From Aneurinibacillus uraniidurans (GTDB lineage Bacteria > Bacillota > Bacilli > Aneurinibacillales > Aneurinibacillaceae), in contig NZ_CP116902.1 of the NCBI RefSeq assembly GCF_028471905.1, positions 2,082,501 through 2,146,500 of the forward strand: a stretch of DNA of 64,000 bases. Direction: 5' to 3'. Shown piece by piece: positions 2 through 46,143 of this stretch (position 1 is the stretch's first letter; each line of letters opens with the position of its first letter). Both the position numbers and the translations under genes were made by a program. The notes below the pieces were generated by a model. That model had not been told where the DNA came from, did no database searches, and worked only from the letters and a program-made list of their open reading frames with translations.

Positions 2-2101
2 ATGCGTCAAATCGCACAAGAAGCCTATCTGTTTACGCTGCCTCTTGCTATTTTGTATTACGAGAACAGCGATTACACCCAAGCTTTACTACAGCTTGAG
101 GAAGGGCTTGAACACTTCCCTACATCCGTAGAGTTGCTTATTTACAAAACGATGGTTCTTCGGGAAATGAACAAACAGGCAGAAGCGAAGGAAGTGATAA
201 AACAAGCACTCCACATCGACGAACAGTCTCCCTATCCGTTCCGTGAATTTTCAATTATTGCGGCGCGGCTACATAGCGAAGGGAAAGTGGATCAATCCCT
301 GCAAATTCTTACAGACATAATTGAGTACACCGACTATGACTATGCGTATGAGCGACGGGCACATATTTTGCGAGAAAGTGGCGAAGACGAGCGGGCGCTG
401 GCTGATCTGAATGAGGCTATTCGTTTGAATCCAAAGCCATATATGTATTGGTATGCGCGCGCAATCATTTATAAGGATTTCGGTGATTTCGAACAAGCAG
501 TGGCAGATTTCAACGAGGTAATTAAGCGGGAGACTGAGGAAACCGTCATTTCTACGTACTATGAGTTAGCTCGTACATATGTACAAATGGAAGATTACCC
601 GGAAGCCATTCGTATTTTCAAAATGACGGTAGAGGACCCATCACGTGAGATTCCGATTTATTACTATTGGTTGTCTTACTCATTAGAACAAATAGGAGAA
701 GTGGAAGAAGCGATCCATTACTTGCAGAAAGGGAAAGAAAGCATTTCATTCTTTGAGTCTCAGCCCGATCACGGTATTTCACTTTATCAAGAACGTGCCG
801 GTTATTCGATGCCGGCCATTGATGCGGTGCGATCTTCTTTGCAAACGCATTGTTATTACACATTACCTTTGGCCAGACTTTATCTTACACAAGAAAACTA
901 TACGCAAGCACAGGAGCAACTTGACGAAGGGCTCTCTATATTTCCTCAATCACTCAGTCTTTTATTCTGCAAAAGTGAAATACTACAAAACATGGGACGA
1001 TGGAAAGAAGCTGAGACGCTTCTCCTTCAAGCTGTACACGATCATGAAGAGGAAGCACCTTGTTATGAGCTAGCCCGCCTGTATTGGGCACAAGATGAAG
1101 ACGAACAGGCCTTGCAAGTTTTACTTACCTTGCACGAAAAGCATCCTCCCTCTCCCACTTCGCTTTATCTGCTTGCCGATGCTTATTATCGACTCGAAAG
1201 ATATGAAGAAGCGTATGAGATAAACAAAAAACTTATTGAAATGGAAGATGATGACGTCCTTAATTTTGTTCAACAGGGGAATATTTTAGTAGGTATCGAA
1301 GATTTCGCACAGGCTAATGCCGCTTATTCACTTGCGATCAAACTGCACGATCGTGAAGATATACGCATGAAGCGAAGTTATGCTCGTTATCAAATACAGC
1401 AGCATGAAAATGCTCTTGAAGATCTTTATCAAGCAGCCGAATTAAATCCAGAGCTAAAAGAAGTTGAATATTACCATACAGCAATGGGACGCGTATTTTA
1501 CGGTATGGAATTGTGGGAGCTTGCGCTGACTGAGTTTACGGAAGGGCTACGCATAAATCCAGAGGCTGCCTGGATTTATGAACAATGTGCGAACTGTCAT
1601 ATTCAACTTGATAAACCGAAATTAGCAATTCGAGATTGTACCCGAGGACTTGCGATTGATCCTCTCTCTGGCTCGCTCTATTGGCTACGTGGCTATCTTC
1701 ATTATCAAAGCGGGAATTATGAAGAAGCGTTACTAGATACCCTCGAATATCGGACATTGCATCCAGAGCTCGATCACGCCCATTATAATCTAGGCGTTCT
1801 ATACAGACGGTTAAGGCGAATCGATGAAGCACTCGAAGTTTTTACGCAATGTCTTACGATTAACCCACAGCATGGGAGTAGTTATTTGGAACGTGCCCAT
1901 ATTTATTATGATCATCAGCTGGAGTTTGCGCTTGCGATTGATGATATCGTACTATGGTCTCTCTATGAAGATAAAGAATGGAGTTTAGACGAACGGATTG
2001 AGCAAATCAGTGAGCTAGATGGTTTTGATGATGAGATCATTTTAAAGGCGATCAATCAATTGCAGCAGTTATATAATCCATCCCCGCATCTGCTTCAATA
2101 A
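2..2101 (+). CDS. Large TPR-repeat protein (probably 5'-truncated by window)
   Basis: A 699-residue reading frame built almost entirely of tetratricopeptide repeats, recognisable by recurring W/Y-x-L-G/A-x2-Y and A-x4-A-I-x-L-x-P spacing (for example near residues 130-170 and 520-600). TPR arrays are helical scaffolds for protein-protein contacts; no catalytic domain, signal peptide or membrane segment is visible. Two stretches are recognisably similar: residues about 10-110 and about 277-380 share the order PLAxLY, YTQA, LxEGL, FPxS and a conserved Y/F-E-LAR-like segment, so the protein contains an internal duplication of roughly 270 residues. The first ATG lies at base 2 with no visible ribosome binding site, so the true start may be upstream of the window. 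It is followed closely by a hairpin terminator. Function unknown. Confidence 0.8.
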   Translation: MRQIAQEAYLFTLPLAILYYENSDYTQALLQLEEGLEHFPTSVELLIYKTMVLREMNKQAEAKEVIKQALHIDEQSPYPFREFSIIAARLHSEGKVDQSLQILTDIIEYTDYDYAYERRAHILRESGEDERALADLNEAIRLNPKPYMYWYARAIIYKDFGDFEQAVADFNEVIKRETEETVISTYYELARTYVQMEDYPEAIRIFKMTVEDPSREIPIYYYWLSYSLEQIGEVEEAIHYLQKGKESISFFESQPDHGISLYQERAGYSMPAIDAVRSSLQTHCYYTLPLARLYLTQENYTQAQEQLDEGLSIFPQSLSLLFCKSEILQNMGRWKEAETLLLQAVHDHEEEAPCYELARLYWAQDEDEQALQVLLTLHEKHPPSPTSLYLLADAYYRLERYEEAYEINKKLIEMEDDDVLNFVQQGNILVGIEDFAQANAAYSLAIKLHDREDIRMKRSYARYQIQQHENALEDLYQAAELNPELKEVEYYHTAMGRVFYGMELWELALTEFTEGLRINPEAAWIYEQCANCHIQLDKPKLAIRDCTRGLAIDPLSGSLYWLRGYLHYQSGNYEEALLDTLEYRTLHPELDHAHYNLGVLYRRLRRIDEALEVFTQCLTINPQHGSSYLERAHIYYDHQLEFALAIDDIVLWSLYEDKEWSLDERIEQISELDGFDDEIILKAINQLQQLYNPSPHLLQ

Positions 2102-2104
2102 GAA

Positions 2105-2151
2105 AAAAGCTGTCCCAAAAGAACTAGAACATGGCGGACGGGACAGCTTTT
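2105..2151 (+). terminator. Terminator after TPR gene
   Basis: Perfect 12-bp inverted repeat AAAAGCTGTCCC (2105-2116) / GGGACAGCTTTT (2140-2151), starting three bases after the TPR stop codon. The T-run is formed by the end of the stem itself. Confidence 0.75.
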
Positions 2152-2163
2152 GTTGTAGAATCG

Positions 2164-2392
2164 ACAACGTTTGGTGGTGAGGGAGAAGGAGCCGTTCGCT
2201 TCAGTACGCTTGCAGAGAAGTAGTAGCTGTCCGCTCCGGGAGCCCGACGAACTCGCCCGCAAAGAACAGCCTGCGATGCTCGTTCACTGAAGGATTGCGG
2301 GCAAAAGCCCGTTCGTCGTTCTCCCTCCGCTGAGTAGGTGCGTACAGGCGCTTGTGTTCCTCCCTTCTCCCACTCCCCGCACAACGTTTCGG
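2164..2392 (+). repeat. Structured intergenic element, copy A
   Basis: A GC-rich ~229-bp block with nested complementarity. The ends pair through AACGTT (2166-2171 / 2383-2388) and GGGAGAAGG / CCTTCTCCC (2181-2189 / 2363-2371). The core pairs through GACGAAC / GTTCGTC (2246-2252 / 2311-2317) and GCCCGCAA / TTGCGGGC (2255-2262 / 2295-2302). A homologous block lies at 2520-2750 in the opposite orientation. The shared core reads GTACGCTT, then CTGTCCGCT, then GACGAACTCGCCC, then GGGCAAAAGCCCGTTCGTC, then CGTACAGGCG. Preserved pairing with changed sequence argues for a functional RNA or DNA structure. I do not recognise the family; possibilities are a non-autonomous mobile element or a structured RNA. 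The open frames across it are GC-rich and lack homologous character. Confidence 0.7.
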
Positions 2393-2519
2393 TTTACAAA
2401 AAGACTCTCGTCGCTAGAATTGATTTGCTCGATAGACACTGACTTTTTGAAAGACGGTTTTCTTTATTTTTACCTGCATAGCAAAGCTCAGTATCTTGAT
2501 TATTCTTGATGATGTTTAA

Positions 2520-2750
2520 CCAAAGTGTGTTAGGAGCGGGATCGGGCGGGGCTGCGGAACGCCTGTACGTGCCTGCTTAGTGGAAGGGGGCAGACGAACG
2601 GGCTTTTGCCCACAATGCTTCACTGTAATCCATCGTGGGCATCTTTTGTGGGCGAGTTCGTCTGGCGCCTGAAGCGGACAGTTACAGCTTCTCCGTAAGC
2701 GTACCAAGTGACGAGGACCCGCCCGATCCCGCTCCTCCACCACACTTTGG
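2520..2750 (-). repeat. Structured intergenic element, copy B (inverted)
   Basis: Second copy of the element, reading on the minus strand. Its ends are longer stems: CCAAAGTGTG / CACACTTTGG (2520-2529 / 2741-2750) and a perfect 19-bp AGGAGCGGGATCGGGCGGG / complement (2532-2550 / 2718-2736). The core pairs through GACGAAC / GTTCGTC (2593-2599 / 2656-2662) and GCCCACAA / TTGTGGGC (2608-2615 / 2646-2653). Compared with copy A, one G:C pair in the core stem has become A:T on both sides, and the outer stem sequence differs completely but still pairs. The 127 bases between the copies show no gene or clear structure. Confidence 0.7.
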
Positions 2751-2770: not shown

Positions 2771-2825
2771 AAGAAAGAGGCTGCCTCAGTCGCTGTGTTA
2801 CAGCATTTGAAACAACCTCTTTCTT
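2771..2825 (-). terminator. Terminator of SMR operon
   Basis: 10-bp inverted repeat AAGAAAGAGG (2771-2780) / CCTCTTTCTT (2816-2825) just after the SMR stop codon on the minus strand, with a T-rich tail. Confidence 0.7.
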
Positions 2826-2833
2826 ATTGAATG

Positions 2834-3148
2834 TTATGATAGAGACTTTAATCCTGTAACACCAATTATGATCGCAACGAGACTAACAATCCGCGCAATA
2901 TTCTTTGATTCTCCAAAGAAAATCATATTCACCAAAACCGCACCAGCTGTTCCCATCCCAATCCATACGGAGTACGCTACACTTACTTGCAAATAATTGA
3001 AAGATGCATATAAACATGCAAAGGCTGCTCCAAGCCCACCAATATAGATCGCTCCGTTGCGTACTGTTTTATTTTGACTATACAGCTTAAGACCAATGAC
3101 ACCGACCATTTCACTTACTGCCGCCAAACATACAAATAACCAACCCAT
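2834..3148 (-). CDS. SMR-family efflux subunit (second of pair)
   Basis: Small multidrug resistance family protein of 104 residues with four predicted membrane helices, the usual length. It keeps the helix-1 glutamate (residue 13, in AAVSEMVGVIGLK), the proton/drug coupling residue of the family, and the YSVWIGMGTAGAVLVN helix-3 segment. It lies 2 bp after another SMR gene and both follow a TetR gene, so the two subunits probably form a heterodimeric exporter, as in YkkCD or the B. subtilis yvdTSR arrangement. The substrate could be a quaternary cation or guanidinium compound; nothing in the sequence decides this. No guanidine riboswitch is visible upstream. Family assignment is firm, substrate is not. 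Confidence 0.88.
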   Translation of the reverse strand: MGWLFVCLAAVSEMVGVIGLKLYSQNKTVRNGAIYIGGLGAAFACLYASFNYLQVSVAYSVWIGMGTAGAVLVNMIFFGESKNIARIVSLVAIIIGVTGLKSLS

Positions 3149-27110: not shown

Positions 27111-27122
27111 TTCCTGTCGCTT

Positions 27123-27321
27123 GTCTCTGTCCTTTTACCTGAGAGATTATCTGCTGTGCAGATTTGCTCCTTCGGTGCTCTGTATCCTCCATGCCACTGG
27201 CAGGAGGGAGTCTCTCCAGAGATTCGTCCCCATGCAGTTCTACTTGTTATCCAAGACCTGAGAGTTTCAAAGCTGTCCGACCAGCTTCTTGCCCCATCGG
27301 TAGATCGGTTGATCTTCTCCT
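27123..27321 (-). ncRNA. Tandem glycine riboswitch
   Basis: On the minus strand two aptamers follow each other. Each has the conserved 3' signature: CTCTCAGG with GGAT near 27255-27266 in the first, and CTCTCAGGTAAAAGGACAGAG region in the second (27124-27144). The internal conserved parts GATGGGGCAA (first) and CACCGAAGGAGCAA (second), together with the GGAGAG start of the second, match the gcvT-type motif. It precedes the AGCS symporter gene by about 110 bases and terminator-like hairpins. Glycine binding normally permits read-through in Bacillus gcvT; the direction of control for this transporter is not shown here. Confidence 0.92.
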
Positions 27322-45867: not shown

Positions 45868-46143
45868 AAAAAACCCGCCCCTATGACTAGGGACGGGTTC
45901 ACCCGCGGTACCACCCTGGCTTCTATCGATGACAAACCGTTCATCAATAGCACTCAGCAACGTACAATCATACGCGTTCTTTTTAACGGTAGAATCCCGT
46001 TCAAGCTTACTCGTATTCAGCTTGACTTCTCGGAGAGGATATTCGGCTGTGAACTGAACACCGGCTTTCAGCAACGACCGGCTCTCTGGGGAACAGACTC
46101 ACAACGTACTTGTTCTCGTCATCGAATTTGTGTGCTTTTGTTA
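45868..46143 (-). ncRNA. T-box leader of ileS
   Basis: On the minus strand the antiterminator sequence AGGGTGGTACCGCG with the UGGN-type T-box core (TGGTACC region, plus 45907-45913) precedes a terminator AACCCGTCCC / GGGGCGGGTT (plus 45870-45899) with TTTTT. Upstream, Stem I elements are present, including AGTTCACAGCCGAATATCC, in which ATC (plus 46038-46040) can serve as an isoleucine specifier codon, and the conserved GAGAGCCGGTCGTTGCTGAAAGCC-like region. Uncharged tRNA-Ile would permit ileS transcription. Leader length about 275 bases. Confidence 0.9.

What the first reader, a model, noticed from the sequence alone, without database searches (positions are those of the whole stretch)
2164..2750. 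Inverted pair of ~230-bp structured elements with compensatory changes
Two homologous GC-rich blocks (2164-2392 and 2520-2750) lie in opposite orientation in an otherwise non-coding gap. In each, the ends pair (19 bp + 10 bp perfect in copy B) and the core pairs through GACGAAC/GTTCGTC. Between the copies a core pair changed from GCCCGCAA/TTGCGGGC to GCCCACAA/TTGTGGGC, and the outer stem sequence changed completely while pairing was kept. This is what selection on structure would leave. A non-autonomous mobile element, a structured RNA or an RNA relative of transposon-linked guide scaffolds are all possible.
Basis: partly seen in the sequence, partly recalled or inferred. Interest (0 to 1): 0.78.

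Follow-up and report, generated by a model that had tools for sequence, protein, structure and literature searches.

The report
Transposon-linked structured RNA repeats in Bacilli
The two blocks are copies of an apparently undescribed, strongly folded RNA-like repeat that is scattered in many copies through the genomes of several families of Bacilli, tends to sit near gene ends, and in some relatives rides inside a jumping gene, so it may reveal an RNA that a common kind of transposon depends on.

Summary
Observation confirmed. Two homologous ~235-bp units (A 2162-2398, minus; B 2520-2752, plus) face outward around a 121-bp spacer. They belong to a large family: 96 covariance-model matches in this 3.85-Mb genome and hits in 68 of 398 sampled genomes of the class, 30 of 145 genera; of 398 genomes drawn across the phylum only the own one matched. 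No Rfam family matches the unit. Covariation is very strong, with G-U above A-C on one strand: selection appears to act on a single-stranded fold. Copies are intergenic without a shared neighbour gene. In the family of Melghirimyces the unit is the body of 256-363-bp elements with 13-bp inverted ends, one abutting an IS1182-like gene with the same end. Best reading: RNA-fold-bearing, non-autonomous elements linked to IS1182-type transposons. What the RNA does, and whether it is transcribed, is unproven.

The parts
2162..2398 (-). Unit A (one RNA-type hairpin rod, sense strand minus); covariance-model core 2192-2353
   Evidence: G000:C1:2084692-2084853, 150.8 bits
2520..2752 (+). Unit B (second hairpin rod, sense strand plus); covariance-model core 2557-2715
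   Evidence: G000:C1:2085057-2085215, 120.2 bits
2399..2519 (.). Conserved spacer between the 5' ends of A and B (116-124 bp in 18 of 22 full pairs of this genome)
   Evidence: one promoter-like match at 2393-2420 reading towards B (10 of 12; 0.5 expected in shuffles)
2532..2550 (+). Left arm of the 19-bp perfect outer stem of B (right arm 2718-2736)
   Evidence: I5
2520..2529 (+). Left arm of the 10-bp terminal stem of B, CCAAAGTGTG (right arm 2741-2750)
2109..2147 (.). Left flanking hairpin GCTGTCCC...GGGACAGC between A and T runs; terminator-like by eye, but not called by the terminator scan, whose loop limit is 8
   Evidence: one search found no terminator-like site in 2060-2860
2771..2831 (.). 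Right flanking hairpin, related to the left one; same caveat
   Evidence: (I3, I4)
2..2101 (+). TPR-repeat protein gene, converging on the element
2834..3148 (-). Small multidrug resistance protein gene, converging on the element; its orthologue in G005 has no element beside it

Best explanation
A and B are two copies of one ~160-nt structured core closed by a long outer stem (units of ~200-250 bp), a repeat family not in Rfam. Shown: the fold is conserved by compensatory change across genera, with a bias to one strand; the units are dispersed and intergenic; in some genomes the unit lies inside an IS1182-type DDE transposon, whose five insertions with both ends lie in hairpins and have 4-6-bp target duplications, and in others it is the body of a short element with terminal inverted repeats (MITE). 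Inferred: most dispersed copies are, or descend from, non-autonomous elements moved by such transposases; they settle near gene ends because the transposase targets terminator hairpins; the outward A-spacer-B pair is a composite that multiplied in this genus and is now mostly inherited and eroding. Also inferred: the fold is kept because it helps the element in cis, as RNA (folding of the outward transcript, control of transposase expression, or recognition by the transposition complex).
For: Covariation: 60 copies from two species, 17 of 34 pairs with both-side changes; 28 matches in other genomes, 94.4% of cells paired, 0 of 500 shuffles as high; 75 diverse sequences, 33 of 34 pairs with both-side changes, 758 double-change cells against 222 shuffled and 101-144 slid. 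Strand: G-U 148 versus A-C 35 cells. Copies: 96 matches in this genome, 29 and 39 in two others. Transposon: the unit is inside the IS at 7 of 7 places where the best piece of the transposase matched at 93% or more; in L312 the match runs from one terminal repeat to the other, in L320 likewise with an internal gap, and L313 and L321 are truncated on the right. At 5 of 5 insertions with both ends, removing the IS and one duplication leaves a hairpin (z -2.3 to -5.8 against simple shuffles); the duplication overlaps the loop in four and lies in the stem in L333. Units of 256, 312 and 363 bp bounded by inverted repeats, one abutting an IS1182-like gene with the same 21-bp end. Position: flanking genes convergent or tandem at 44 of 45 scored sites in G000 and 46 of 47 in G005. 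IS1272, of the IS1182 family, is reported to target hairpins, several of them terminators (PMC4923244, passages).
Against: No match to this transposase (E <= 1e-20, one query) in the own genome, G005, G007, G036, G050, G054, G107 and others that carry units, so it is not shown who moved those copies. The composite in this genus has no clear transposase-type ends: one of four unit ends resembles the 13-bp repeat (shuffle fraction 0.04 in four tests). Outer stems differ between copies of one genome (G107), unlike normal terminal repeats. Only 1 of 21 loci with more distant IS1182-like genes has a unit, and there beside the gene, so the unit is not a general part of that family and may be a passenger. 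The right end of that IS was not found, and the 312-bp element shows no target duplication. 17 of 20 sites with a mapped flank are shared with G005 (biased sample): little recent movement. The terminator scan found none at the window copy.
Confidence: 0.55

Rival explanations
1. A resident multi-copy small-RNA family with a host function (regulation, RNA binding), spread by duplication and occasionally carried off by an IS that landed beside it at a terminator.
For: Conserved unpaired motifs (CCAGCGGA ... GGAGCGGACAGU..CUUC); paired positions change about half as fast as unpaired ones between orthologous copies (about 9.1% versus 16.8% per site, computed); 17 of 20 mapped sites shared between two species (biased); in solo units with an upstream gene within 400 bp it is co-directional in 29 of 43; one promoter-like match in the spacer reads towards B.
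Against: Very different copy numbers between related genomes (no match in G002 and G004; 96 in G000); no Pfam family in more than 2 of 69 flanking proteins; units inside inverted-repeat-bounded elements and a transposon.
Confidence: 0.25
2. DNA-level palindromes, like BIMEs: cruciforms or bidirectional insulators between convergent genes that act as DNA or as terminators.
For: Long stems, flanking hairpins, near absence between divergent genes, a terminator-rich setting.
Against: G-U exceeds A-C on one strand (148:35; 226:109 and 141:84 on pairs predicted on both strands), and internal loops are conserved; a double-stranded palindrome predicts neither. Caveat: unpaired columns also show more C>T than G>A.
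Confidence: 0.1
3. Apparent compensatory change made by quasi-palindrome correction (template switching in hairpins) or gene conversion, without selection on the fold.
For: Very long outer stems, some replaced almost wholesale between copies of one genome (G107); orthologous copies were less alike than the best paralogue in 15 of 19 comparisons (the maximum over many paralogues leans that way).
Against: Correction would also homogenise bulges and internal loops, yet the asymmetric core with conserved unpaired motifs persists across genera.
Confidence: 0.05
4. A guide or bridge RNA: the unit is the RNA partner of the transposon and helps to choose the target, in the manner of IS110 bridge RNAs or OMEGA RNAs.
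For: It sits in the noncoding 5' end of the transposon at 7 of 7 close places, and short elements keep it with strong covariation.
Against: The enzyme is a DDE transposase; 20 of 21 loci with more distant relatives lack the unit, and IS1272 is reported to target hairpins without such an RNA being mentioned in the passages seen. No variable stretch matching targets was sought. No Rfam family matches.
Confidence: 0.05

Closest known systems
IS1182-family insertion sequences (IS1272, TnSha1; PMC4923244, passages)
   Same: DDE transposase; integration into hairpins, terminators among them, as at the five sites here
   Different: These carry a ~200-bp structured unit between the left end and the transposase gene, and have 4-6-bp duplications instead of blunt deletion of part of the hairpin
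MITE-like repeats of Bacillus cereus (bcr1-bcr3; PMC3446304, passages)
   Same: Short, intergenic, multi-copy, no protein; some units here are bounded by terminal inverted repeats
   Different: A conserved RNA-type core shared across families, with strand-biased covariation; outer stems that differ between copies
REP doublets / BIMEs / REPINs with RAYT (recalled)
   Same: Paired inverted palindromes between genes
   Different: Units far longer; no Y1 transposase found in eight unit-bearing genomes (G035, G054, G069, G096, G107, G204, G212, G240)
HEARO / OMEGA RNAs and IS110 bridge RNAs (recalled)
   Same: Structured RNA in the noncoding part of a transposon
   Different: No Rfam match; the partner is a DDE transposase of the IS1182 type
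MRSC-65-2 repeat motif (PMC11109978, passages)
   Same: Multi-copy structured repeat with strong covariation
   Different: A single long stem with a UYCCGG repeat, diverse phyla

Membership tests
Any Rfam 15 family | Score at or near a family's threshold at the unit | tested here: not met
   (window copies and 20 loci from other genomes)
Structured RNA family | Compensatory base-pair changes beyond shuffles and slid controls | tested here: met
   alignments in 46 and 74 are fitted to the model
Structured RNA family | Transcript exists | not testable with these tools
   no RNA data; one promoter-like match in the spacer, 0.5 expected
MITE | Short, multi-copy, without coding capacity | tested here: met
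MITE | Terminal inverted repeats matching an autonomous element | tested here: inconclusive
   found in three genomes of family f30 (only the left end of the IS seen); not shown for the window's own element
MITE | Target duplication or empty site | tested here: inconclusive
   met for the unit-bearing IS; of two single-hairpin sites in G000 one can be an empty site or a deletion, the other looks like a deletion
IS1182-type transposon carrying the unit | Unit within the transposon at every close copy | tested here: met
   7 of 7 places
IS1182 family at large | Unit as a general feature of the family | tested here: not met
   1 of 21 loci with more distant relatives, and there beside the gene
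REPIN / RAYT system | Y1 (IS200-like) transposase in the genome | tested here: not met
   no match in G035, G054, G069, G096, G107, G204, G212, G240; present in 16 of 25 genomes searched, G000 among them
Group II intron derivative / retroelement | Reverse transcriptase available in the genome | tested here: not met
   no RVT_1 match in G000, G005, G107, G096; present in 16 of 20 genomes searched
HEARO / OMEGA guide scaffold | Match to a described RNA family | tested here: not met
IS110 bridge RNA | DEDD transposase and loops matching target and donor | not tested
   the partner found here is DDE/DUF772; loops were not compared with targets

The most novel reading that the evidence does not exclude
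A DDE (IS1182-type) transposon group has an RNA partner: a conserved ~160-nt structured RNA encoded in its noncoding end is required in cis for mobilisation or for target choice at terminator hairpins, and short derivatives keep the RNA because they move by it. Dispersed copies in several families of Bacilli, this window included, are the traces of such RNA-dependent elements.
Probability: 0.18. Interest if true: 0.92.

Novelty: new variant of a known kind. Interest (0 to 1): 0.74.

Why it matters
A strongly covarying RNA-type family with 29, 39 and 96 model matches in the three genomes counted, absent from Rfam 15, is a sizeable gap in the annotation of Bacilli. Because the unit is found inside a transposon that inserts in hairpins, it offers a direct test of whether a DDE transposon uses a structured RNA, something I know of (recalled) only for IS110 and TnpB/IscB systems. 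If it is only a passenger, it is still a new dispersed structured repeat near the ends of many genes.

Tried and rejected
Rfam at loose thresholds: only chance matches at the unit, plus a T-box and a c-di-AMP riboswitch elsewhere in two loci. Phages and plasmids (blastn with the window element and one other unit) and viral contigs (one exact pattern): no match. Shared neighbour gene: 69 of 82 flanking protein references scanned, no Pfam family in more than 2. Y1 transposase and reverse transcriptase as common movers: absent from several unit-bearing genomes, present in others. Empty sites by comparing G000 with G005: mostly shared sites and deletions. Terminator proximity by a home-made scan: 18 of 70 upstream flanks against 3.1 expected in shuffles, but other flanks and strands score similarly (13, 14 and 21 of 70), so it shows a terminator-rich setting, not a fixed side. 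Paper library: no description of this repeat found; subscription papers and bioRxiv are not held. PMC8632094, PMC11109978, PMC2267715, PMC3446304 and PMC4923244 were seen as passages only; the others as listings.

Limits: models R1 and R2 were built from few lineages and their E-values are rough; one search scored at most 7 candidates per genome, so counts there are minima; A2, A4 and A5 are fitted to the model, which favours its pairs; the shuffles keep base composition only. The pattern hit in Brevibacillus daliensis (L191) was not confirmed by R1 (22 of 23 loci were). The shared-site sample is biased, since most G005 stretches were fetched because they hold an element.

Full report
WHAT IS THERE. 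The two blocks are inverted, homologous units in the gap between two converging genes (TPR protein, small multidrug resistance protein). B is a near-perfect rod: 19-bp and 10-bp outer stems, z -7.6 and -8.4 against shuffles. A, read on the minus strand, has the same core but a damaged outer stem in this copy (z -2.4 and -2.2). The ORFs over the blocks have no Pfam match.

COPIES IN THE GENOME. Two DNA searches gave 66 and 48 matches, short self-matches included. After merging, 49 sites in G000 and 55 in the stretches held of a second species of the genus, G005, were catalogued: 22 and 32 with both A and B nearly complete, the rest truncated or single. At every catalogued site with both, A is inverted relative to B; the one flagged exception (G000:2550991) has only A pieces. 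The spacer is 116-124 bp in 18 of the 22 full pairs of G000. Model R2 finds 96 matches in G000. Of the 89 listed, 56 form 28 outward pairs within 500 bp; none are inward or direct.

A FAMILY, NOT A LOCAL REPEAT. A model (R1) from 60 A and B cores matched 16 of 121 related genomes. Two genomes of another genus hold 29 and 39 matches. A DNA pattern scan of named genomes hit 23 stretches, in Aneurinibacillus tyrosinisolvens, Brevibacillus reuszeri, B. migulae, B. daliensis, B. panacihumi, an uncultured Brevibacillus and two Melghirimyces species; R1 confirmed 22, not the one in B. daliensis. Outward pairs also occur in other genera (L195, L196, L202, L211, L252, L260, L307, L308), as do direct tandems (L188, L231, L309, L310); no inward pair was seen in the 17 sources.

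STRUCTURE AND SELECTION. In the 75-sequence alignment 94.0% of cells pair; 33 of 34 pairs show changes on both sides; 758 double-change cells against 222 in shuffles and 101-144 when slid. That alignment is fitted to the model, which favours it, but the contrast is large, and the MAFFT alignment of 60 copies gives 17 of 34 pairs with both-side changes. Conserved unpaired motifs are CCAGCGGA and GGAGCGGACAGU-n5-CUUC. G-U exceeds A-C 148:35 and, on pairs predicted from both strands, 226:109 (B) and 141:84 (A); unpaired columns also show more C>T than G>A, so part of this can be a base-change bias. Between orthologous copies of G000 and G005, paired positions differ at about 9.1% and unpaired at 16.8% (computed); 20 of 195 changed pairs are double changes that keep a Watson-Crick pair. 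Orthologous copies were less alike than the best paralogue in 15 of 19 comparisons, tied in 1, more alike in 3.

SETTING. Composite sites lie between convergent (19) or tandem (25) genes in G000 and 25 and 21 in G005; divergent 1 in each; 4 of 49 and 8 of 55 sites were not scored. Many copies in this genus are flanked on both sides by related hairpins of the type GCTGTCYC...GRGACAGC, some by other terminator-like sequences (by eye). This pattern occurs at 19 places in G000, 9 of them away from catalogued units. A consensus scan with a loop limit of 8 found no terminator-like site at the window copy and one promoter-like site reading towards B. At two of the single-hairpin places G005 has a full element: the first fits either an empty target or loss by recombination between hairpins; at the second the remaining bases look like a deletion. 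Of 20 G000 sites with a flank mapped in G005, 17 have an element or remnant there (biased sample). So in this genus the elements look mostly old and eroding.

THE LINK TO A TRANSPOSON. Genome G097 has one detected unit, on a 10.6-kb contig. It lies between perfect 15-bp inverted repeats that also enclose a 507-aa DDE transposase (DUF772, DDE_Tnp_1). Plasmid relatives at about 40% identity are annotated 'IS1182 family transposase' in four of eight records. With a best piece at 93% or more, this transposase occurs at 7 places (G097 1, G035 2, G176 4), some of them broken or truncated, and all 7 carry the unit upstream of the gene, antisense to it. Of 21 loci with more distant relatives only one has a unit (L323, G354). 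There the unit is the body of a 363-bp element with ends AGAAGCGTTGTGA...TCACAACGCTTCT that abuts an IS1182-like gene preceded by the same 21-bp end (its right end was not found); Melghirimyces thermohalophilus (L157, 256 bp) and G185 (L274, 312 bp, one mismatch) have units bounded by the same ends. Five insertions of the unit-bearing IS have both ends: removing the IS and one 4-6-bp duplication leaves a hairpin at each (z -2.3 to -5.8); the duplication overlaps the loop in four and lies in the stem in L333. IS1272, of the IS1182 family, is reported to integrate in hairpins, several of them terminators (PMC4923244, passages).

WHAT IS NOT SHOWN. The own genome and several unit-rich genomes have no match to this transposase at E <= 1e-20; Y1 transposases and reverse transcriptases are also missing from several. 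The ends of the A-B composite are not clear transposase ends. Outer stems vary strongly between copies of one genome (G107), unlike ordinary terminal repeats. Transcription could not be tested. The unit could be a passenger picked up by an IS that lands at terminators.

VERDICT. The family is real and, by Rfam 15 and the paper searches listed, undescribed. Its link with IS1182-type transposons is seen in six genomes (G035, G097, G176, G354, G094, G185) and inferred elsewhere. Whether the RNA serves the transposon is the open and testable question.

Noticed in passing
window 45886-46131 (-) and 27117-27229 (-): T-box leader and glycine riboswitch (Rfam).
   Followed up: no
G000, 19 places: Palindromic hairpins GCTGTCYC...GRGACAGC, many with a related loop, 9 of 19 away from catalogued units; possibly target sites, remnants or a dispersed terminator.
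   Followed up: partly
L303 (G097 contig, 10.6 kb): Dense cluster of mobile genes: an IS110-type and two DDE transposases, and by eye an IS256-like transposase in pieces and a reverse-transcriptase fragment.
   Followed up: partly
L335 (G176:C1, about 102.9 kb): Internally deleted copy of the unit-bearing IS that keeps the unit and both ends: an intermediate between transposon and short element.
   Followed up: partly
G000:2550991-2551241 and G005:3025474-3025707: Orthologous site that keeps only A in one species and only B in the other.
   Followed up: partly
G000:3045903-3046011 (L118): About 110-bp remnant that joins the outer end of A to the outer end of B, apparently through a short direct repeat.
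   Followed up: no
G107 copies L251-L267: Outer stems of about 20 bp that in some copies differ almost completely from the others yet pair well.
   Followed up: partly
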